From the NCBI GenBank assembly GCA_028278525.1, contig JANQEE010000010.1:1-53287 (forward strand): a stretch of 53,287 nt of DNA, given 5' to 3'. Shown here in pieces: positions 25,106 to 52,381 of the stretch. The notes beneath the pieces were generated by a model. That model made no database searches. It saw only the letters and a program-made list of their open reading frames with translations, and was not told the origin of the DNA. The position numbers and the translations under genes were made by a program. The stretch's first letter is position 1; each line of letters opens with the position of its first letter. The stretch comes from Minwuiaceae bacterium (GTDB lineage Bacteria; Pseudomonadota; Alphaproteobacteria; Minwuiales; Minwuiaceae).

Positions 25106-25783
25106 TCAATCCGCGCGCAGTTTATAGCCGGCGCCGCGTACTGTCTGCAGCTTGTCGCCCTGCGGCCCCAGCTTGCGTCGGAGCCGGCCGACATAGACGT
25201 CGACGATGTTGGTCAGCGGGTCTTCGCTCGCGCCCCAGACGCTGTTCAGGATGCGCTCGCGCGAGAACACGCGGCCGGGCTTGGACAGGAACAGTTTCAG
25301 GATCTCGCGTTCCTTCGCCGTCAGGTCCAGCGGCTCGCCCTCGACCGTCGTCTCCAGCGTGTCCAGGTCCAGCGCGATGGCGCCGGCGCTTAAGACCGTC
25401 TCCGGCGCCGCCTCGACGAACCGGCCGGAGCGGCGCGCCAGCGCCTCGACCCGGGCGATCAGTTCGTCGAACTCGAACGGCTTGACCATGTAGTCGTCGG
25501 CGCCGATGCGCAAACCCTCGACCCGTTCGTCCAGCGCATCCAGCGCCGACAGGATCAGGATCGGCGTATAGTCGCGCCGCGCTCTCAGCTTGCGGCAGAA
25601 ATCCTGCCCCGGCAGGCCCGGCAGCATCAGGTCCAGCACGATGACGTCGAACCGGTCCTGCCGGGCGAGTTCCAATCCGGTCTCCCCGTCGGGCGCGTGG
25701 GTGACCGTCCAGCCCTCCGCGCGCAGCCCGCGGAGCACGAAGTCCGCAACCCGCGCCTCGTCTTCCACCAGCAACACGTTCAT
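25106..25783 (-). CDS. OmpR/PhoB-type response regulator
   Basis: This 225-residue regulator has a receiver domain (acidic pocket E7 D8, phospho-acceptor D51 in VIVLDLMLPG, lysine in DDYMVKPFEF near 100) and a winged-helix DNA-binding domain (EREILKLFLSKPGRVFSRERIL; VDVYVGRLRRKLG). It is activated by phosphorylation, most likely by the kinase encoded at 26072-27649, 288 bases upstream on the same strand. The ATG at 25781-25783 overlaps the stop codon of a small upstream frame (25780-25857), which suggests coupled translation. Confidence 0.93.
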   Translation of the reverse strand: MNVLLVEDEARVADFVLRGLRAEGWTVTHAPDGETGLELARQDRFDVIVLDLMLPGLPGQDFCRKLRARRDYTPILILSALDALDERVEGLRIGADDYMVKPFEFDELIARVEALARRSGRFVEAAPETVLSAGAIALDLDTLETTVEGEPLDLTAKEREILKLFLSKPGRVFSRERILNSVWGASEDPLTNIVDVYVGRLRRKLGPQGDKLQTVRGAGYKLRAD

Positions 25784-25857
25784 CGGCCGCCCCTTCCATC
25801 TCGTCCGTCGTTCCGGGCAGGCCGGGAACGGGCTGTTGCATACGCCGGGAAAAGCAT
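25780..25857 (-). CDS. Possible 25-residue upstream peptide coupled to the response regulator
   Basis: An ATG at 25855-25857 has an excellent ribosome site (GAGGAAGGAG, 7 bases before it) and opens a 25-codon frame (MLFPAYATARSRPARNDGRD then GRGGR). Its TGA overlaps the ATG of the response regulator as ATGA. The peptide is arginine- and glycine-rich and matches no family I know. The same frame could be extended upstream to a GTG at 25987-25989, giving 69 residues with a CRCPHCKR stretch, but that start has a poorly placed ribosome site. The rest of the 288-base gap (25858-26071) holds nothing else I can support. Confidence 0.4.
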   Translation of the reverse strand: MLFPAYATARSRPARNDGRDGRGGR

Positions 25858-26071
25858 CGTCTGGCTCCTTCCTCTTACCTGCCGTTTACAATGAGGACAA
25901 CGACACCTGCGAGGATTTATTCCATCGATGCTGTGACAAAAATACGCGCGGTAATCGCCGCGCGCCCAGAAAAGGCCAAATAATATCACCCCTTGCCTAA
26001 GAACAAACTACCAATTCCGGCAGGGGCGGACTTTGTTATTTCTGTCCAATTAGTTGAACGAATGCCTGATT

Positions 26072-27649
26072 TTACACGGCGGCTGCCAGGCGGGGTCTTT
26101 CCGGCAAAGTAAAGCGCGCCTGCACGCCTTCGCCGGGGTCGCTGGAGAGCGCGATCCGGCCGCCATGCGCCTCGACGATCGCCTTGGCGACAGGCAGGCC
26201 GAGGCCGGCGCCGCCGTCGTAGCGGAGGGCGGCGTTGGAGCCACGGAAGAACCGTTCGAATACGTGGTTCATCTCTTCCTCGGTCAGGCCCGGCCCATTG
26301 TCGGCGACGGTGACGGCGAAGCCGCCGGGGGCCTGGTCCACCCGCACCCGCACCTCTTCTCCGCCATAGCGCAGGGCGTTCTCCAGCAGGATCGTGATCA
26401 CCTGCTGGATGCGGCTGGGATCGGCGGCCAGCTTGGCCGGCCGCACCGAAGCCTCGAAAATCACGGCCTTCTCGGACCCACCGAGCGTCCGGCTTGCCTC
26501 GACCGCATGTTCCACCAGTTCGGCCAAATCCAGCTCCTGCGGGCGGATGCGCACATCGCCGGTTTCCTGCCGCGCCACGAACAGCAGGTCGTCGACGATC
26601 CGCGCCGTATGGTCCGCGGCCTCGCGGGTGCGGCTCAAGACTTCGCGGTACTCTTCGGTACTGCGCTCGCCGCCGCGCAAGGCGACGTCGGCCTCGCCGC
26701 GGATGATCGTCAGGGGGGTGCGCAGCTCGTGACTGACGTCGGCCAGCAGCCGTTTGCGGTTCGCCTCCGTCTGCCGCAGGGTCTGCAAAAGCTTTTCAAG
26801 CTGCGCGGTGCGGCGCGACACCTCTTCCTCCAGCGCGTCGCGGGACGCGCTCAAGCTGTCCTGCCGCGCCGCGACGCGGTCGATCATCTTGTTGAAGGCC
26901 TGCGCCACCTGGTCCAGCTCGGTATCGCCGGGCGCGTCGATGCGGTGCGCCAGTTCGCCGCGTCCGACCGCCGCCGCGCCGTCCAGCAGACGCTGCAACG
27001 GCCTGGTCAGGCCCCGGCGCAGCAGGACGATGCCGAAGAACGCGCTAAGCGCGGCCAGTACGCCGGCCGCGACCGCCGCGCGTTCGTAAAGCGCGATGGC
27101 CGCCCGAAGCGCCGCCTCGGTCTCGGCCACCTCTTCCTTCTCCTCGGCCAGGGCCTCCAGGATCAGGGCCTGAAAGTTGGCGTCGATCTTCCGGTCGAGA
27201 ACGTCGGCGAGATGCGCGGTGTATTCGGCCGGATCGGCAAAACTCGCGCGCGCCTGCACTCTGTCGAATTCGTTCAGCACGCGGTTGATCTGCCGTTCGA
27301 TCTGCGCCAGCAGTTCGAGTTCTTCGATCTCCTCGTCGCCGACCAGTTGCACCTCTTCGGCGATCAGAATTCTGAGCTGGCTGATATCGGCGCGGATCTC
27401 GTTCAGCAGCGCCGCCTCGCCCGCGCCCCGGTCCCTGTCGCCGATCAGCAGCGCATCGCCGTACTGCTTGAACAGTTGGTAAGCATGGCTCGACAGGGCG
27501 AGGTATTGCTCATGCACCAGATGCGCGAGCTGCGAACGCTCCAGATGGTATTCCGCGGAACGCGCGCTCCAGAATGCCAATCCGGCGGAGACCAGCGCGA
27601 TCGCCAGCAGCCCGCTGAAGGACAGCGTCAGTTTGGTCAGATAACGCAA
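26072..27649 (-). CDS. Membrane sensor histidine kinase with HAMP domain
   Basis: With a TTG start at 27647-27649 the protein has 525 residues: a first membrane helix (about 7-30, TLSFSGLLAIALVSAGLAFW), a periplasmic helical sensor of about 160 residues, a second helix (about 192-210) and HAMP (211-264). A HisKA domain with phospho-acceptor H307 in ADVSHELRTP follows, then HATPase_c with ENALRYGG, DNGPGL, FERFFRG and GGAGLGLPVA. TTG was chosen because GGAG lies 10 bases upstream and the ABC exporter stop is 16 bases away, while a longer frame would overlap that gene. The partner is the regulator at 25106. The signal is unknown, but operon position suggests the exported product or its target stress. 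Confidence 0.9.
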   Translation of the reverse strand: MRYLTKLTLSFSGLLAIALVSAGLAFWSARSAEYHLERSQLAHLVHEQYLALSSHAYQLFKQYGDALLIGDRDRGAGEAALLNEIRADISQLRILIAEEVQLVGDEEIEELELLAQIERQINRVLNEFDRVQARASFADPAEYTAHLADVLDRKIDANFQALILEALAEEKEEVAETEAALRAAIALYERAAVAAGVLAALSAFFGIVLLRRGLTRPLQRLLDGAAAVGRGELAHRIDAPGDTELDQVAQAFNKMIDRVAARQDSLSASRDALEEEVSRRTAQLEKLLQTLRQTEANRKRLLADVSHELRTPLTIIRGEADVALRGGERSTEEYREVLSRTREAADHTARIVDDLLFVARQETGDVRIRPQELDLAELVEHAVEASRTLGGSEKAVIFEASVRPAKLAADPSRIQQVITILLENALRYGGEEVRVRVDQAPGGFAVTVADNGPGLTEEEMNHVFERFFRGSNAALRYDGGAGLGLPVAKAIVEAHGGRIALSSDPGEGVQARFTLPERPRLAAAV

Positions 27650-27665
27650 ATGTTGCCACGCTCCG

Positions 27666-29345
27666 TCACGCCGCCCGGCGTGGTGCGAAGAACTTCGCGG
27701 TCGGGCCGTTGCCGGCCAACAGGTCGGCGGGCGGCCCGGCTTCGCGGATACGGCCGTCTTCGACGTACCAAAGCAGGTCCATACGCCGGGCAATGGCCAG
27801 ATTATGCGTCACGATCAGCGTCGTTGCATCACTTTCCCGCACCAGCCGCTCGACCAGATCGGGGCCTTCGGCATCCAGCGCGTCGTCCGGCTCGTCCAGC
27901 AGCATCAGCTTTGGCCGGGCCAGGGCGGCCCGGGTCAGCAGCACCCGCCGCGCCTCCCCGGCGGAGAGGTTGCGTCCGCCCTCCGTCACCTTGCCGCCCA
28001 AACCGCCAAGCCGCTCGATCACATCCTTCAGACCGAACGCCGCCGCGGCGGCCAGGACCGTCTTGTCGTCGGGCCGTTTCGGCGCGCCCATCACCAGGGC
28101 CCGGCGGAGCGTGCCCGCCAGGATCGGCGAACGCGTGCCGACCAGGGCGATCGCCCGCCGCCGTTCCGCGGCGCTTAAGCCGCTCGGCGCATGGCCGCCC
28201 AGCATGACCTCGCCTTGCTTCGGCTGTTCCAGGCCGGCGGCCAGGCCGATCAGGGTCGACTTGCCCGATCCGTTGCCGCCGACGATGGCGATCTTGCGAC
28301 CCGCCGCCGCCTCGATATCGATCTTATCCAGCGCCCCCGCCGACACTTTGGCGAAGCTCAGCGGCTGCGGCGCATCCGGCAGCGGCTCCTGCGCCTCGAT
28401 GCGCGGGCGGCTCAGCTTGCGGGCCGACAGCATGATTTCGCATTTATCGCGCGCCGCCACCCAGGCCCGGTGTCGGTCCCAGACGCCGGCCAGGTCGCGC
28501 ATCGGCTGGATCATCAGGCCGACCGCGGCCAGCGCGCCCGCCGCTTCCGCCGGCGCGGCGCCGCTTTTCATGGCGACCAGGAACAGGCTGGCCGCGGCGA
28601 TGCCGGAGACGGCATCGGGCACGGCGCGCAGCAGCGCGGCGCCCTTGGCCCGGTCCAGCGCGGAGGCGATCAGTTTTTCCGTCCGGCGCAGCAGATGCGC
28701 GGTCTCCGTCTTGGTGCGGCCGAGCAGGCGCAGTTCCGGCGCGTGTGGGATGCGCTCGCTCATATCCGCGGCCAGTTTCGCCCGCCGCGCGCGCAGCCGT
28801 TTGTGCGCCGGCCCCAGGCGCGGGCCCATCAGCGCCATCGCCGCCAGGCCGAGCGTGATCGGGACAGCCGCGGCCAGGCCCAGATGCGGATTGAGCAGGA
28901 AGAGAATGCCGGTGGCCGCCGGCAGCACGATGCTGGCGGAGATCAGCCGGGCGACCCCCAAACTGACCCAGCCGCGCACCGCGGCCAGGTCGCCGACGAA
29001 GCGCATCGCCAGCCCGCCGCTTCGTCGCTTGGAGACATCGCGCGCCGACATCTGCGTCAGATGGGTGAACAGTTTTACGCGGAGGGATGCCGCATAGTCC
29101 TGGCCAACCCGCTCCGCCACCACCCGCTCGACCACCCTCAAACCGGCGATGGTCAGGCCGGCCGCCGCGATCAGGGCCAGCGCGGCGAGCGGCAGCGCGG
29201 CGCTCTCGTCCCGGAACGCCGCGAACACGTCCCGGGTGGCGAAGGCCGCGACCCCGGCTGCCGCCGCCTGCCCGAGGGCGAGGACGGCGACCAGGGCAAT
29301 GCTACGCCCGCGGCCTTCGCCGGCAATGCGCGGCAGGTGGCTCAT
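27666..29345 (-). CDS. ABC exporter half-transporter (permease fused to ATPase)
   Basis: This 559-residue protein has an N-terminal six-helix export domain and a C-terminal ATPase: Walker A GGNGSGKST, signature LSAGEARR, Walker B KLMLLDEPDD, D-loop ALDAEG and H-loop VTHN. The layout resembles CydC/CydD or peptide and lipid exporters and should work as a dimer in the inner membrane. Two details are unusual: alanine for glycine in the signature (LSAGE) and DEPDD in place of DEPT/DEAT. The ATG at 29343-29345 overlaps the stop of the P-loop gene upstream, and the kinase gene follows after 16 bases, so it belongs to a tight operon. The cargo is unknown. Confidence 0.9.
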   Translation of the reverse strand: MSHLPRIAGEGRGRSIALVAVLALGQAAAAGVAAFATRDVFAAFRDESAALPLAALALIAAAGLTIAGLRVVERVVAERVGQDYAASLRVKLFTHLTQMSARDVSKRRSGGLAMRFVGDLAAVRGWVSLGVARLISASIVLPAATGILFLLNPHLGLAAAVPITLGLAAMALMGPRLGPAHKRLRARRAKLAADMSERIPHAPELRLLGRTKTETAHLLRRTEKLIASALDRAKGAALLRAVPDAVSGIAAASLFLVAMKSGAAPAEAAGALAAVGLMIQPMRDLAGVWDRHRAWVAARDKCEIMLSARKLSRPRIEAQEPLPDAPQPLSFAKVSAGALDKIDIEAAAGRKIAIVGGNGSGKSTLIGLAAGLEQPKQGEVMLGGHAPSGLSAAERRRAIALVGTRSPILAGTLRRALVMGAPKRPDDKTVLAAAAAFGLKDVIERLGGLGGKVTEGGRNLSAGEARRVLLTRAALARPKLMLLDEPDDALDAEGPDLVERLVRESDATTLIVTHNLAIARRMDLLWYVEDGRIREAGPPADLLAGNGPTAKFFAPRRAA

Positions 29346-30433
29346 GCCGCGACCCCGACCTCGGCGACGCCCAGTGCCGGCGCGTGGCGGGCGCCGGACA
29401 TCTTGCCCAACAGGGCATTGGCCTGGGCCGGATCGCATAGGGCGTCGCGAGCGATGACGCCGATACCGGTCGCCATTTCGGCCTCTGCGGCGCCCAGCGG
29501 CGAGCAACTCACCATGCCGGTCACGGCGGCCGGTTCGACCCCCATGCCGCGCAGCGCGGTGCAGCCGCCGGCCGCGGCCAGCGCGTCGGGCGCGGCGAAA
29601 ATCACGCCGGCGAAACCGTCACGCACTTTCGGCTTGCGCAACAGGTCGGCGGTCTCTTTCTGGAACACGCCGTCGGCCAGTTCGACCACCGCGACCTCGC
29701 AGCCGTCGCGCGCCGCGTGGGCCAGCAGCGTGTCCAATCCGGCCTCGATCCGGTCGAGCGGCTGCAGGTAGGTGGACACCATGCCCGCGTCGGTGAAGTC
29801 CGCGACGTAGCGGGCGCCGGTATCGACGAAGGCGTTGAAGTCGCCGAACGCGCCGGTGCCCGTCGCCTTGATCGCCGCGACCCGGTGGCCCGCCGCGCTG
29901 AGCCCGTGCGCCAGGCTGGCGACGGCCGTGGTCTTGCCGGAATTCATCGAGGCGCCGACGACACCGATCACCGTCATGCCGATCGGCCGCGCAGCCTTGT
30001 CCAGCGCGTAATCGGCAACGTTGATCCGGTTGCCCGACGCGTCCGCCAGCAGGCCGAGCGGGACGACCAGGGTCGGCGCCGACATCCGCGCGTGGCGATG
30101 CCGCATCCGACCCAGCACGCCGCCGCCGGCCAGCATGTCCGCACCGTCCGGGTCCAGTTCCGCCAGCCCCTCGAACTGGTCCGGGGCGTAGCGGTCGCCG
30201 CAGGCCAGGACCACCAGGTCGCCGACATACAGCGTCGAGGCGCGGCCGGCGGCCAACTGGATTCTCTTGTGCGAACCGATGCGCTCGACCCGGCCGAGCA
30301 CGACGTCGCCGGACACGGCTTGGGCCAGGTCGTCGGTCAGCGACACGGCGTCGCCACGGAAAACGCGGCGGGTCGAAAAGGCCCATTTGGCTTGGGCCAG
30401 CATGTCCGGGACGATTGGGTTGATGGCGGTCAT
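29342..30433 (-). CDS. P-loop protein resembling DUF1611
   Basis: This 363-residue soluble protein has an N-terminal domain of about 145 residues (GDVVLGRVERIGSHKRIQL; YVGDLVVLACGDRYAPDQFE) that I do not recognise. A P-loop domain follows with GASMNSGKTT (160-169) and a downstream ATGTGAFGDFNAFVDTGARY stretch. The overall plan recalls DUF1611 proteins, one of which (DgcN) acetylates D-glutamate, and dethiobiotin-synthetase-like NTPases. The resemblance is by eye only. The ATG at 30431-30433 has AAGGAGA just upstream; an in-frame ATG 120 bases further up has no such site. It overlaps the ABC exporter gene by four bases. Confidence 0.72.
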   Translation of the reverse strand: MTAINPIVPDMLAQAKWAFSTRRVFRGDAVSLTDDLAQAVSGDVVLGRVERIGSHKRIQLAAGRASTLYVGDLVVLACGDRYAPDQFEGLAELDPDGADMLAGGGVLGRMRHRHARMSAPTLVVPLGLLADASGNRINVADYALDKAARPIGMTVIGVVGASMNSGKTTAVASLAHGLSAAGHRVAAIKATGTGAFGDFNAFVDTGARYVADFTDAGMVSTYLQPLDRIEAGLDTLLAHAARDGCEVAVVELADGVFQKETADLLRKPKVRDGFAGVIFAAPDALAAAGGCTALRGMGVEPAAVTGMVSCSPLGAAEAEMATGIGVIARDALCDPAQANALLGKMSGARHAPALGVAEVGVAA

Positions 30434-30579
30434 GGTCTTCTCCTTGGATCTGTTCGGCGCCGAACCGGCTACCGACATTCGATGAGATTTAAGAGTGCGA
30501 ATTTCTGTTGAAGCGCGCTTGTCGCGAAGATGAATGCCCCCGCAGGCTTTCATGAACGGCGGATGAAAGATCAGGCCGG

Positions 30580-31467
30580 TCACGAAGCGGAAAGCGGGGT
30601 CCCCTCCCCCTGGCCGACGGTGAACGTTCCCGCGACGATCGCCACCGGGTCCGGCAGCACCACCCGGTCCAGGCCGCCCCGTTCGACGCAGGCCTGAAAG
30701 TCGTGGCCGCAGTCCGGCAGTACCGCCAGCGATACGGTCGGCTGTATGCCACGCTCGGCGGCCGCCTGGCGAAGCGCGTCGGCCCAGCGGCCGGCCCGCG
30801 TCACCCGGTCCGCGCCCTGCTGGCGGTCGATCTCCGGACCGCTGCGCGTGTTGGGATCGACGATGTTGTCTTCCGCCCCGACGCAAACCTGGATCGGCAG
30901 GCCGAGAAACCGGTCCAGGCCGGCCGCGAGCTTGGGTCCCCAGTCGTCCGTCCGTCCAGGCCGGGCGGCCAGTCCATAGGGAAACGCCGCCTCGTCCGGG
31001 AACGTGTACCAGCCGGCCGCGGCCACGGTCAGCCGCGACACCAGATGCGGATACAGCATGGCGAAGCGGTGGGCGAACTGCGCGCCGCCGGAATAGCCGG
31101 CCAGTTCGAAGGTCCGCGTGCGCCAGATGCCGGCCAGCCTGAGCTCGGACAGCAGGGCGAGCAGGGCCAGGTCGGCGCGCTTGCGCCGCACCACCCGCTG
31201 GTAATGCGGCCACCGCTTCTCGTCGAACAGCGGCGCGATCACCGGCCGGCCGAGCGCCGCGGCCCGCGCCGCGTAAAGCGCGGCCTGGTTGCGGGCGCCG
31301 CGCTGAATGCCGTGGATCGCGACGATCGGCGGAGCGCCCGTCGAGATTTCCGGCGGCAGTGCGATCCAGCAGTCCAGGGCCTTGCGCCCCTTGGCCTGCC
31401 GCTGCTCCAGCCGAAAGCTCTCGGCTTGTCGCGACGCTTTGGTTTCTGGGTTACTCGTGACAGGCAT
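30580..31467 (-). CDS. Alpha/beta hydrolase
   Basis: This 295-residue protein has the alpha/beta-hydrolase fold: oxyanion loop IHGIQRG (51-57), nucleophile elbow GYSGGA with S126, an acidic residue in VGAEDNIVDP and the catalytic histidine in PDCGHDF near 254. It has no clear signal peptide, so it is probably cytoplasmic. The closest look-alikes are PHB-depolymerase/esterase-type hydrolases. It starts 16 bases after the beta-hydroxylase stop. A 146-base gap with no convincing gene separates it from the P-loop gene. The role could be hydrolysis of an ester or peptide bond in the operon's product. Confidence 0.85.
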   Translation of the reverse strand: MPVTSNPETKASRQAESFRLEQRQAKGRKALDCWIALPPEISTGAPPIVAIHGIQRGARNQAALYAARAAALGRPVIAPLFDEKRWPHYQRVVRRKRADLALLALLSELRLAGIWRTRTFELAGYSGGAQFAHRFAMLYPHLVSRLTVAAAGWYTFPDEAAFPYGLAARPGRTDDWGPKLAAGLDRFLGLPIQVCVGAEDNIVDPNTRSGPEIDRQQGADRVTRAGRWADALRQAAAERGIQPTVSLAVLPDCGHDFQACVERGGLDRVVLPDPVAIVAGTFTVGQGEGTPLSAS

Positions 31468-31483
31468 TGTTATCGTTCCTCGT

Positions 31484-32056
31484 TCAAGCGGCCTTGCCGA
31501 AGACCTCGGCGACCCGCGCGTTGGGCAACAGGTCGAAGATCATGTGGATGCGGTCCTGGTCGCCGTCGTTGAAGGCTTCGTGCATCTGCTTGTTGTCGAA
31601 CCACCAAAGCTCGCCTTCACGCATTCGAACCTCCTCGTCGCCGGCTTTCAGCCAAGACCCCTGCGTCGATCGCAGTACGAGGTGATAACGGTGGCGCACC
31701 AGATAATATTCCCCGCGATCGACATGCGGATAAACGCGCCGGCCCGCCGGCAGGCAGACGATCTTGGCGCGGCTCAGCTGGCTGTCCTCTTCCCGCGCGA
31801 AATTTCGCAAGAATCCGCAGGCCATCGGATAGAGCCTGGACGTGGTCGTCCACCGGCTCTCGTGCACGTCGCGGCGCTTGCGCTCGCCGATCGCCGATTT
31901 GCGCAGGCCCCGGATCGGGATCGACAGCGCCTCGCGCTGCACCTTGATCTTGTCCTGCCGCCCGGTCGACACGCTCCACGCGTCGTCGATCGAAGCTATT
32001 TCATCCAGAAAGGGTTTGGGATCGACGGTTGATTTGACGCGTCGAAAATACTGCAT
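31484..32056 (-). CDS. Aspartyl/asparaginyl beta-hydroxylase-like 2OG-Fe(II) oxygenase
   Basis: This 190-residue protein matches the aspartyl/asparaginyl beta-hydroxylase fold: RLYPMACGFLRNF, AGRRVYPHVDRGEYYLVRHR (H111, D113), YHLVLRS with H125, and the closing GELWWFDNKQMHEAFNDG with H159. These iron and 2-oxoglutarate enzymes hydroxylate Asp or Asn side chains in peptides or free precursors. The ATG at 32054-32056 follows GGAGGAGAAGG. It is the first gene of a minus-strand operon with a hydrolase, a P-loop protein, an ABC exporter and a sensor kinase, which suggests it modifies the exported compound. Confidence 0.87.
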   Translation of the reverse strand: MQYFRRVKSTVDPKPFLDEIASIDDAWSVSTGRQDKIKVQREALSIPIRGLRKSAIGERKRRDVHESRWTTTSRLYPMACGFLRNFAREEDSQLSRAKIVCLPAGRRVYPHVDRGEYYLVRHRYHLVLRSTQGSWLKAGDEEVRMREGELWWFDNKQMHEAFNDGDQDRIHMIFDLLPNARVAEVFGKAA

Positions 32057-32360
32057 CGCCTTCTCCTCCAAAGCACGGCGGAGCCGGAACGGCTCCGGCG
32101 CAATCGCTGATCTGTTCGCCCTTTCGGCGGCTCGGAAAGAGAACGCCGCGTAATATCATCGAGGTGGGCCAGCGGCGATGAAGGTTCAACTAAGTATCTG
32201 TTTTTTAACACAACTTTTTGCTGCGCTTCATGTTCTGTTGGGCATCCGTTCACCGGATTTTCAGACGATGTTCATGTTCCGGGATGTGTCACGTTCGCCG
32301 CCGGCAAATCGTCAATAGGGCAAACGTCCGGCCCGCCGGAAACAACACCAAGAGGTAGAA
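32057..32360. other. Divergent intergenic region with 5' hairpin
   Basis: This gap separates the beta-hydroxylase operon (minus) from the secreted Rid gene (plus). It holds a perfect 8-bp hairpin (CGGAGCCG at 32079-32086, CGGCTCCG at 32090-32097, GAA loop) in the 5' leader of the operon, and an AT-rich core near 32190-32225 where promoters are likely. A 60-85 codon minus-strand frame crosses it (GTG near 32253), but it lacks a ribosome site and overlaps the hydroxylase gene, so I do not call it. Confidence 0.5.
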
Positions 32361-34781: not shown

Positions 34782-35411
34782 TCAGCCCTTCCGCCGCCGC
34801 CGTCCGGCAACAGCCAGCCCGGCCAAGCCGAGACCCAGCAACGACAGCGCCCCTGGCGCCGGCACGTCGGCGGCGGCCGATTCCGTGAAGCGGGCGAAGA
34901 CATCAAGCTCGTTCGCAGACTGATCGAAATCCTTCCGTACGTTCCCCGGACCAAAGACTCCGTCAACGCTATCGTTGTCTTCGTTGCGTGCGGAAACGGT
35001 CGCCGCTCTGTCGGGGAAGCTCGGACTTGATGCGGCGTACGGGATGACGGCATTGCAGAAAAGATCGGCCGTATCCGTGCACCCGACCGTCAGATCGGAG
35101 TCGCTGTCGAACATCCCTTCGGGTGTATCCAGGAACACCTGGTCGAGCAGCGCCTGCCCCGCCGCCCGGGCGTCAGTCTCATTGGTGAAGGCGAAATCCG
35201 ATGACTCGTCGCAGCCGCCGAACACGCCGATACAAGTGCCGTCGACGAATTGCACGTCGAACAATTTACCGCCGACATCCACGTTGCGGGCGCCGGTCAG
35301 TTGGCCGCTGCCGTCGACCAGCAGCACCGCGGCGGACGCCGCCGCCGGCAGCCCTGCAAACGCCGCGACCGCGCCGGCCAGGAGAAGCGATTTCAGTGTC
35401 GTGGAAAGCAT
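34782..35411 (-). CDS. PEP-CTERM sorting-signal protein, paralogue 1
   Basis: This 209-residue exported protein has a signal peptide (AGAVAAFAGLPAAASAAVLL around residues 12-31) and ends with VPAPGALSLLGLGLAGLAVA followed by GRRRRKG. This is the tripartite PEP-CTERM-type signal: P-x-P motif, membrane helix, arginine cluster. The middle is acidic with pairs of cysteines (GTCIGVFGGCDE; VGCTDTADLFCN), possibly disulfides. Such proteins are cut and sorted by exosortase to the surface, often together with exopolysaccharide. The neighbour at 35472 is a close copy, so the pair arose by tandem duplication. No exosortase gene is in the window. Confidence 0.82.
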   Translation of the reverse strand: MLSTTLKSLLLAGAVAAFAGLPAAASAAVLLVDGSGQLTGARNVDVGGKLFDVQFVDGTCIGVFGGCDESSDFAFTNETDARAAGQALLDQVFLDTPEGMFDSDSDLTVGCTDTADLFCNAVIPYAASSPSFPDRAATVSARNEDNDSVDGVFGPGNVRKDFDQSANELDVFARFTESAAADVPAPGALSLLGLGLAGLAVAGRRRRKG

Positions 35412-35471: not shown

Positions 35472-36080
35472 TCAGGCCGCCTCGCGCCGCCGTCCGGCAA
35501 CGGCCAGCCCGGCCAGGCCGAGACCCAGCAACGACAGCGCCCCGGGTGCCGGCACGTCGCCGGCGACCGATTCCGTGAAGCGGGCGTAGACTGCGGCGTC
35601 TCTTTCGGCTGTGTCGAAATCTATTCTGCTGAAGCCAACGTCGGTAGAGTCCGGGAAAGAATCCGGGCTGAAATTTGTCGCTTTGGCAAACGACACAAAG
35701 CTGCCTGGTTTGAACGGGATCCGGGCTTCACAGAAAAAAACGTCTGAACACCCGAATGTCAGTTCCGGTTTGCTGTCGAACATCCCTTCCGGTGTGTCCA
35801 GGAACACCTGGTCCAGCAGCGCCTGCGCCGCCGCCAGGGCGTCGGTCTCATTGCCGAAGTCGGTGTCCGAGTCTTCGTCGCAGCCGCCGAACAGGCCGAT
35901 GCAGGTGCCGTTCACGAATTGCACGTCGAACAATTTGCCGCCGACATCCACGTTGCGGGCGCCGGTCAGTTGGCCGCTGTCGTCCACCAGCAGCACGGCG
36001 GCGGACGCCGCCGCCGGCAGCCCGGCAAACGCCGCGACCGCGCCGGCCAGTAAAGCCGCCTTGAAAAAGCTGTTTCTCAT
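35472..36080 (-). CDS. PEP-CTERM sorting-signal protein, paralogue 2
   Basis: This 202-residue protein has a signal peptide (MRNSFFKAALLAGAVAAFAG and on to AAASA) and the C-terminal signal VPAPGALSLLGLGLAGLAVA then GRRREAA. Its first 100 residues are nearly the same as paralogue 1 (AVLLVDDSGQLTGARNVDVG; GGKLFDVQFVNGTCIGLFGG), while the region before the sorting signal has diverged (CSDVFFCEARIPFKPGSFVS). It lies 60 bases upstream of paralogue 1 on the same strand. It is divergent from the membrane AraC-type regulator gene, which may control it. Confidence 0.82.
   Translation of the reverse strand: MRNSFFKAALLAGAVAAFAGLPAAASAAVLLVDDSGQLTGARNVDVGGKLFDVQFVNGTCIGLFGGCDEDSDTDFGNETDALAAAQALLDQVFLDTPEGMFDSKPELTFGCSDVFFCEARIPFKPGSFVSFAKATNFSPDSFPDSTDVGFSRIDFDTAERDAAVYARFTESVAGDVPAPGALSLLGLGLAGLAVAGRRREAA

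Positions 36081-50188: not shown

Positions 50189-52381
<2,193 letters not shown>

What the first reader, a model, noticed from the sequence alone, without database searches (positions are those of the whole stretch)
25106..32056. Operon-like set joining an Asp/Asn beta-hydroxylase, hydrolase, P-loop protein, ABC exporter and two-component system
Six genes lie head to tail on the minus strand, with gaps of 16 bases, a 4-base overlap and 16 bases between key pairs. The order suggests that a compound or peptide is hydroxylated, processed by the DUF1611-like P-loop protein and the hydrolase, exported by the half-transporter, and sensed by the kinase and regulator. I know of no described pathway with this set. 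Gene order and motifs are seen; the pathway is inference.
Basis: partly seen in the sequence, partly recalled or inferred. Interest (0 to 1): 0.72.

Follow-up and report, generated by a model that had tools for sequence, protein, structure and literature searches.

The report
Sigma-controlled acidic-peptide tailoring and export genes
Six neighbouring bacterial genes, found together in many related bacteria, carry a promoter site matching a known sigma-factor family and likely modify and export an acidic amino-acid or peptide product, which would give a testable job to a sigma factor whose role is unknown.

Summary
In detail: six minus-strand genes at 25106-32056 with gaps of 16, 146, -4, 16 and 288 bases. 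All six recur together in 19 of 80 fetched relatives, Hyd+PL+ABC in 53. They are not one plain operon. An ECF26-type promoter, GGAATA-N15-CGTT, stands before the response regulator (strict motif in 17 of 30 relatives), and 11-bp-spaced TGAA/TTCA boxes stand before AspH and PL. Such boxes occur in 28 of 34 relatives carrying the kinase gene but in 1 of 46 without it. In 33 of 80 loci the cluster lies beside a sigma/subtilase pair; in this genome that pair, with an anti-sigma gene and the same motif, is on another contig. Predicted cascade: sigma, then regulator, then AspH-Hyd and PL-ABC-HK. The products are an Asp/Asn-hydroxylase with intact active-site residues, a poly(Asp)-hydrolase-like esterase, a BioD/DUF1611-type P-loop protein whose N-domain has no detected fold match, and a CydC-like half exporter. 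Asp-rich tracts in the linked subtilases, and in small secreted proteins of some relatives, suggest an acidic substrate; unproven.

The parts
31484..32056 (-). AspH: 190-aa Asp/Asn beta-hydroxylase family 2OG oxygenase
   Evidence: PF05118 68.1 bits; H111-x-D113, R123, H125, H159, R169 present and invariant among the 21 aligned sequences
30580..31467 (-). Hyd: alpha/beta hydrolase, LpqC/poly(Asp)-hydrolase-like; no signal peptide seen by eye
   Evidence: PDB 3d0k E 3e-18, 6ve6 poly(Asp) hydrolase-1 E 2e-13; S126, D200, D204, H255 invariant in 9 aligned sequences
29342..30433 (-). PL: P-loop (SIMIBI/BioD type) protein with all-beta N-terminal domain
27666..29345 (-). ABC: CydC-like half ABC exporter
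   Evidence: ABC_tran, ABC_membrane; TIGR02868 180.2 bits, under its cut-off 329.05; Walker A, signature, Walker B present
26072..27649 (-). HK: HAMP sensor histidine kinase (TTG start)
   Evidence: HAMP, HisKA, HATPase_c; HELRTPL at 307
25106..25783 (-). RR: OmpR/PhoB-type response regulator
   Evidence: Response_reg and Trans_reg_C
25899..25923 (-). ECF26-type promoter GGAATA-N15-CGTT, 115 bases before the RR start
   Evidence: strict motif before RR in 17 of 30 relatives, 0 of 30 on the wrong strand
30509..30567 (-). TTCA direct repeats at 11/22/22 bp before PL, candidate RR boxes
   Evidence: 10 chosen sequences; unbiased count of 3 or more copies: 25 of 80 PL upstream regions
32226..32275 (-). 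TGAA direct repeats at 11-bp steps before AspH, candidate RR boxes
   Evidence: 12 chosen sequences; unbiased count: 18 of 24 AspH upstream regions; the triple repeat occurs twice in the whole genome

Best explanation
The six genes likely form the effector arm of an ECF26-type (RpoE6-like) sigma regulon, in which the sigma factor, encoded on another contig beside an anti-sigma gene and an Asp-rich subtilase gene, is predicted to switch on the response regulator, which would switch on AspH-Hyd and PL-ABC-HK through 11-bp-spaced TGAA boxes. Shown: the genes, their conservation as a set, the motif and box conservation, and the sigma/anti-sigma/subtilase trio with the same motif in this genome. 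Inferred: which protein binds which site. Biochemistry, inferred: in the cytoplasm PL uses a nucleotide to modify an acidic amino acid or peptide (amide formation or acylation of the BioD/DUF1611 kind), AspH beta-hydroxylates an Asp or Asn residue, Hyd trims or releases the product by ester or amide hydrolysis, and a homodimer of the ABC half-transporter exports it; the HK senses the product or the envelope state. The likeliest substrate class is an Asp/Asn-rich peptide or an Asp/Glu-derived small molecule.
For: Synteny: all six genes in 19 of 80 loci; AspH always with Hyd (24 of 24) and nearly always with ABC (23 of 24). In L056, L064, L065, L070, L071 and L080 subtilase, sigma, PL, HK, RR, ABC, Hyd and AspH all lie in one locus. 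Promoter: GGAATA-N14-16-CGTT occurs 118 times in 1.19 Mb of the 80 loci against 0, 1, 4, 7 and 0 in five first-order Markov simulations; 83 of 118 stand near the start of a cluster or sigma-module gene on the right strand: RR 17 of 30, Hyd 19 of 54 (two of these, L008 and L014, lie inside AspH coding sequence), subtilase 13 of 32, sigma 9 of 33, F11 lipoprotein 7 of 10, AspH 5 of 24, PL 4 of 80, ABC 0 of 70, HK 0 of 34. It also occurs in loci titled Thauera, Marinobacter and Halieaceae. In this genome three of 11 matches (N14-15) are the sigma/subtilase divergent promoters and the RR promoter. GGAATA is the published ECF26 -35 consensus and rpoE6 is divergent from a serine protease gene (PMC6180224 section 7). 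Boxes: 3 or more TGAA or TTCA at 11/22-bp steps before AspH in 18 of 24, before PL in 25 of 80, before Hyd 0 of 54, RR 0 of 30, ABC 0 of 70, HK 2 of 34; background 276 of 20000 windows. Boxes before PL or AspH: 28 of 34 loci with HK, 1 of 46 without (Fisher 1e-14, relatedness not corrected; with full flanks only, 22 of 27 against 0 of 28). Genome level, this genome left out: 3 of 5 genomes with strong AspH also have strong PL, of 288 (hypergeometric 5e-4, relatedness not corrected). Subtilase of this type at 150 bits or more: 5 of 12 PL-positive and 1 of 18 PL-negative genomes that I picked (Fisher 0.026; at E 0.001 it is 6 and 2). Acidic theme: Hyd resembles poly(Asp) hydrolase-1; the linked subtilases carry Asp-rich tracts, three unlinked paralogs in this genome do not; secreted Asp-rich proteins lie directly before PL in L153, after RR in L154 and before Hyd in L182.
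Against: No substrate is shown. AspH is missing from 56 of 80 loci, so hydroxylation cannot be the core step. The subtilase tract is acidic also in loci without AspH. No Asp-rich secreted gene was found in the window, and by the same crude test only 1 of 47 loci without a linked subtilase has one. In this genome the motif is not more frequent than its backward control (11 against 10), so only position supports it here. The window holds a second match inside AspH coding sequence (31687-31712), taken as chance. The strict motif is absent before RR in 13 of 30 relatives, among them close ones (L003, L005, L007, L010; L007 and L010 have one mismatch, L005 two), and alignment A6, which shows it invariant, left L005, L007 and L010 out. 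It is absent from the annotated plasmid clusters L182, L183 and L185. Wrong-strand matches were 8 for Hyd, 8 for subtilase and 10 for sigma, expected near divergent promoters but not sorted one by one. The general-stress sigma recognises a similar motif. Eight other genomes of the family gave no PL match. ECF26 membership was not scored with an ECF model.
Confidence: 0.55

Rival explanations
1. The set makes and exports a small acidic metabolite (for example an N-acylated or hydroxylated aspartate or glutamate derivative); no protein or peptide is tailored, and the Asp-rich subtilase is only a co-regulated protease.
For: PL P-loop fold is of the BioD/CTP-synthase/DUF1611 kind; distant PL homologs lie with argC-, argB- and argD-like genes in three genomes in which ArgJ was not found; sigma-type sites also stand before glycerate kinase and a DASS anion symporter in relatives; the half-transporter resembles the thiol exporter subunit CydC.
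Against: PL with the arginine genes is only about 27% identical to the window's (36% or less among themselves in part) and may have another function; no donor or ligase gene is conserved in the set.
Confidence: 0.35
2. The promoter before RR belongs to the alphaproteobacterial general stress sigma (EcfG/RpoE2, GGAAC type), not to the ECF26 sigma; the set is then one of many general stress targets.
For: PMC6180224 reports that 27 of 40 RpoE6 targets overlap the RpoE2 regulon and that the consensus motifs are similar (section 7).
Against: GGAATA rather than GGAAC is what recurs; the same motif marks the sigma's own locus and loci titled as Beta- and Gammaproteobacteria, where EcfG is not expected (recalled).
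Confidence: 0.12
3. The set is a periplasmic redox or oxidative-stress exporter, working like CydDC to send a reductant out, with AspH and Hyd as side enzymes.
For: CydC is the best NCBIfam match of the half-transporter; L183 carries katG, cytochrome b and PepSY genes beside AspH-Hyd-PL-ABC; other ECF26 sigmas answer sulfite (PMC3511301 abstract and passages).
Against: The CydC score is under its cut-off and no second half-transporter lies in the set; [quoted passage not shown]
Confidence: 0.15
4. The genes are only neighbours carried on a mobile or selfish island, without a joint task.
For: Patchy occurrence, plasmid copies, gene order varies.
Against: Conserved boxes before AspH and PL that track the two-component genes and recurrence with rearranged order fit selection for joint use.
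Confidence: 0.06

Closest known systems
ECF26 sigma modules, RpoE6/SMa0142 type of Sinorhizobium meliloti (PMC6180224)
   Same: Sigma factor with downstream transmembrane anti-sigma factor, divergent serine protease, GGAATA promoter; a S. medicae copy was seen, and this genome's sigma is about 47% identical to that one
   Different: There the protease, a glyoxylase and hypothetical genes are the most prominent reported targets and no role is known; here the motif reaches a response regulator and, in relatives, Hyd-PL-ABC and AspH
DgcN/DUF1611 (TM0796, 2g0t)
   Different: All-beta N-terminal domain instead; no PF07755 match; no BLAST similarity to this genome's own DgcN-like protein, which has a DgcA-like neighbour (the names DgcN and DgcA are my reading)
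Poly(Asp) hydrolase-1 / LpqC-type esterases
   Same: Sequence match and conserved Ser/Asp/His
   Different: No signal peptide seen by eye; best match is LpqC; substrate untested
CydDC thiol exporter
   Same: CydC is the best-scoring named family
   Different: Single half-transporter in the set, score under cut-off
AspH / cis-proline hydroxylases (PF05118)
   Same: Family, active-site residues
   Different: 190-aa stand-alone form with HxD..H, no signal peptide seen by eye

Membership tests
ECF26 sigma module (RpoE6 type) | Sigma gene divergent from a secreted serine protease gene, anti-sigma gene downstream | tested here: met
   C11 locus L163; the anti-sigma membrane segment was read by eye
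ECF26 sigma module (RpoE6 type) | GGAATA promoter at its own locus | tested here: met
ECF26 sigma module (RpoE6 type) | Match to the ECF26 group model | not testable with these tools
   no ECF library at hand
DUF1611/DgcN (PF07755) | PF07755 match over cut-off | tested here: not met
DUF1611/DgcN (PF07755) | SIMIBI-type P-loop domain like TM0796 | tested here: met
   other P-loop families tie within about 1 Z
Asp/Asn beta-hydroxylase (PF05118) | Family score over cut-off and iron/2OG residues | tested here: met
   residue roles recalled from human AspH
Asp/Asn beta-hydroxylase (PF05118) | Hydroxylates Asp or Asn | not testable with these tools
   needs an assay
CydC | TIGR02868 over cut-off | tested here: not met
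   180.2 against 329.05 bits
PHA depolymerase (NF050058) | NF050058 over cut-off | tested here: not met
   30.4 against 150 bits
RiPP biosynthesis cluster | Conserved small precursor ORF | tested here: inconclusive
   none conserved by eye in the two gaps; Asp-rich secreted ORFs in some relatives only

The most novel reading that the evidence does not exclude
A new kind of post-translational system: an ECF26 sigma cascade that makes secreted proteins or peptides with poly-Asp/Asn tracts (Asp-rich subtilases, EF-hand-like proteins with Asp tails) and tailors those tracts by beta-hydroxylation (AspH), a nucleotide-driven side-chain modification (PL with a new N-terminal fold) and trimming (Hyd), before export or for signalling; in some relatives a vitamin-K-carboxylase-like HTTM protein is added.
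Probability: 0.2. Interest if true: 0.88.

Novelty: new variant of a known kind. Interest (0 to 1): 0.62.

Why it matters
The protease-linked RpoE6-type ECF26 arrangement is described as widely conserved and without a defined role (PMC6180224, section 7). A conserved effector set with readable control sites turns that into direct experiments. PL belongs to a family with at least 1713 scored homologs (candidates were capped), an unassigned reaction and an N-terminal domain without a detected fold match, so its chemistry may be new. If the Asp-rich tracts are the substrate, it would be a bacterial parallel to hydroxylation and carboxylation of acidic residues in animal proteins.

Tried and rejected

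Corrections and choices: the Hyd motif count (19) holds two matches inside AspH coding sequence, by a looser rule, labels 96 of 118 matches with an ORF of the set (Hyd 17, RR 17) and leaves 22 unlabelled. Alignments A5, A6 and A7 were of chosen sequences; A6 left out L005, L007 and L010, A5 left out loci without a Hyd-PL gap, so I made unbiased counts over all loci. In the tract count (20 of 33 subtilases at 50% D/E or more over 40 residues) the ORFs of L022 and L046 were wrong-frame and count as misses; one search shows Asp-rich tracts in their true frames. In one search the control (220 kb, window included, 0 hits) is small and from other genomes. Of the arginine-type neighbours only the L161 genes were scanned, and only argC passes its NCBIfam cut-off; the beta-aspartyl-peptidase and M20 matches are also under theirs.

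Literature searches for DUF1611, DgcN, peptidase S8 with ECF, Asp-rich protease with ECF, ECF26 and GGAATA listed no paper on this set. Seen: section 7, abstract and passages of PMC6180224; passages (for PMC3511301 also parts of its abstract) of PMC6695200, PMC6143709, PMC12363236, PMC10845958, PMC3511301 and PMC6527743. DgcN chemistry and the EcfG motif are otherwise recalled.

Full report
Observation. Six genes lie head to tail on the minus strand at 25106-32056, with gaps of 16, 146, -4, 16 and 288 bases in the order AspH, Hyd, PL, ABC, HK, RR.

Conservation. One scan of genome contigs with PL found 149 relatives and kept the best 80 loci. By tblastn with set score limits, ABC is present in 70 of 80, Hyd in 58, HK in 34, RR in 30, AspH in 24, all six in 19; a subtilase and a sigma gene occur together in 33 and never apart; a recognisable anti-sigma in 26. 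Only 55 of 80 loci have both 8-kb flanks, so these are lower bounds. Order is not fixed: in six Roseobacter-type loci PL-HK-RR faces ABC-Hyd-AspH, with subtilase and sigma beside them and a recognisable anti-sigma in four of the six. Eight other genomes of the window's own family gave no PL match, and plasmids carry it, so it probably moves. In 289 genomes of the class, counting strong matches only, PL (150 bits or more) is in 13 and AspH (120 bits or more) in 6; 4 have both, the window's genome included. At E 0.001 the counts are 17 and 26. G192 and G285 have an AspH-like protein at about 40% identity without PL.

Promoter motif. In the HK-RR gap of 13 chosen sequences GGA, TA and CGTT are invariant or nearly so: GGAATA-N15-CGTT, in the window at 25923-25899, 115 bases before the RR start. 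Over all loci the strict motif stands before RR in 17 of 30; close relatives L007 and L010 have it with one mismatch, L005 with two, and L003 with an extra base. The strict motif occurs 118 times in the 80 loci against 0-7 in five Markov simulations; 83 stand near the start of a set gene on the right strand. In this genome it matches 11 places, no more than its backward control (10), but three of them are the divergent sigma/subtilase promoters on C11 and the RR promoter here.

Boxes. The upstream region of AspH in 12 chosen sequences keeps TGAA repeats at 11-base steps, and the Hyd-PL gap in 10 chosen sequences keeps TTCA repeats at 11, 22 and 22 bases: the same box in the other direction, the layout typical of OmpR/PhoB-type regulators (recalled). 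Counted over all loci, three or more copies in step occur before AspH in 18 of 24 and before PL in 25 of 80, against 0 of 54 for Hyd, 0 of 30 for RR, 0 of 70 for ABC, 2 of 34 for HK and 276 of 20000 random windows. Boxes before PL or AspH are found in 28 of 34 loci that carry HK and in 1 of 46 that do not (L052, a short contig); with full flanks only, 22 of 27 and 0 of 28. So the box goes with the two-component genes, as expected if that regulator binds it. The triple TGAA box occurs only twice in this 5.95-Mb genome.

The sigma factor. PMC6180224 (section 7 read) states that the ECF26 consensus is -35 GGAATA and -10 GT, that rpoE6 is divergent from a serine protease gene and that this arrangement is widely conserved, and that microarray data have failed to define a role for RpoE6. 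The listed promoter of that protease, SMa0142, resembles the one before the subtilase in L077, Sinorhizobium kostiense. S. medicae has subtilase, sigma and anti-sigma in the same arrangement. So the trio is a known kind; the link to AspH, Hyd, PL, ABC and the two-component system is what I did not find in print (searches).

Acidic tracts. Subtilases of the sigma module carry, after the signal peptide, long Asp-rich (in some Gammaproteobacteria Glu/Ala-rich) tracts: at least 50% D/E over 40 residues in 20 of 33, counting two wrong-frame ORFs as misses. This genome's C11 subtilase has one; three unlinked paralogs do not. Small secreted proteins with EF-hand-like loops (under Pfam cut-offs) and Asp runs lie directly before PL in L153, before Hyd in L182, and near Hyd in L078; L154 has a 160-aa acidic repeat protein after RR, with a subtilase just beyond; L183 a PepSY protein with Asn/Asp/Ser repeats. 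A crude scan found no such protein in 220 kb of control sequence and 26 in 25 of 80 PL loci, 24 of the 26 being the subtilases themselves. In L063, L078, L081 (partial) and L182 an HTTM protein lies near; the L063 copy matches the vitamin K carboxylase lumenal domain. This is suggestive, not proof, that Asp/Asn-rich chains are substrates.

Verdict. The set is real and shares control sites, with good support; the sigma-to-regulator-to-operon cascade is a prediction from sites; the chemistry is open. I rate it a new variant of a known kind (an ECF26 regulon with an undescribed effector set), with a categorically new tailoring system as a live minority reading.

Noticed in passing
L159, L160, L161: PL-like proteins (about 27% identity) stand beside arginine-biosynthesis-like genes of three genomes in which ArgJ was not found: a candidate for an unrecognised first step of arginine synthesis.
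   Followed up: partly
window 34782-35411 and 35472-36080: Tandem secreted paralogs ending in VPAPGALSLLGLGLAGLAVAGRRR, PEP-CTERM-like by eye.
   Followed up: no
window 50192-52357: KatG-like gene, 71% identical to the KatG near AspH-Hyd-PL-ABC on a Sulfitobacter plasmid.
   Followed up: no
L023, L025, L064, L071, L080: ECF26-type motif before glycerate kinase and/or a DASS anion symporter gene, in 5 of the 7 loci that carry these genes.
   Followed up: partly
L063, L078, L081, L182: HTTM / vitamin-K-carboxylase-like gene near Hyd-PL-ABC (partial match in L081); a DUF393 neighbour is annotated in L182 and similar in L063 and L078.
   Followed up: partly
L185:13838-17316: Peptidase-domain ABC transporter and HlyD adaptor beside the HK and RR of a PL cluster on a Paracoccus plasmid: peptide-export flavour.
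   Followed up: no
L077, L039, L065: DUF6065-type gene near the sigma module; ECF26-type motif before it in L077 and L039; also beside the S. medicae trio.
   Followed up: no
L001:1120-3105 (G000 contig C63): This genome's only PF07755 protein, with a DgcA-like enolase neighbour by eye, separate from the window's PL.
   Followed up: partly
L162:5325-7316: PL-like gene next to a beta-aspartyl-peptidase-like gene.
   Followed up: no
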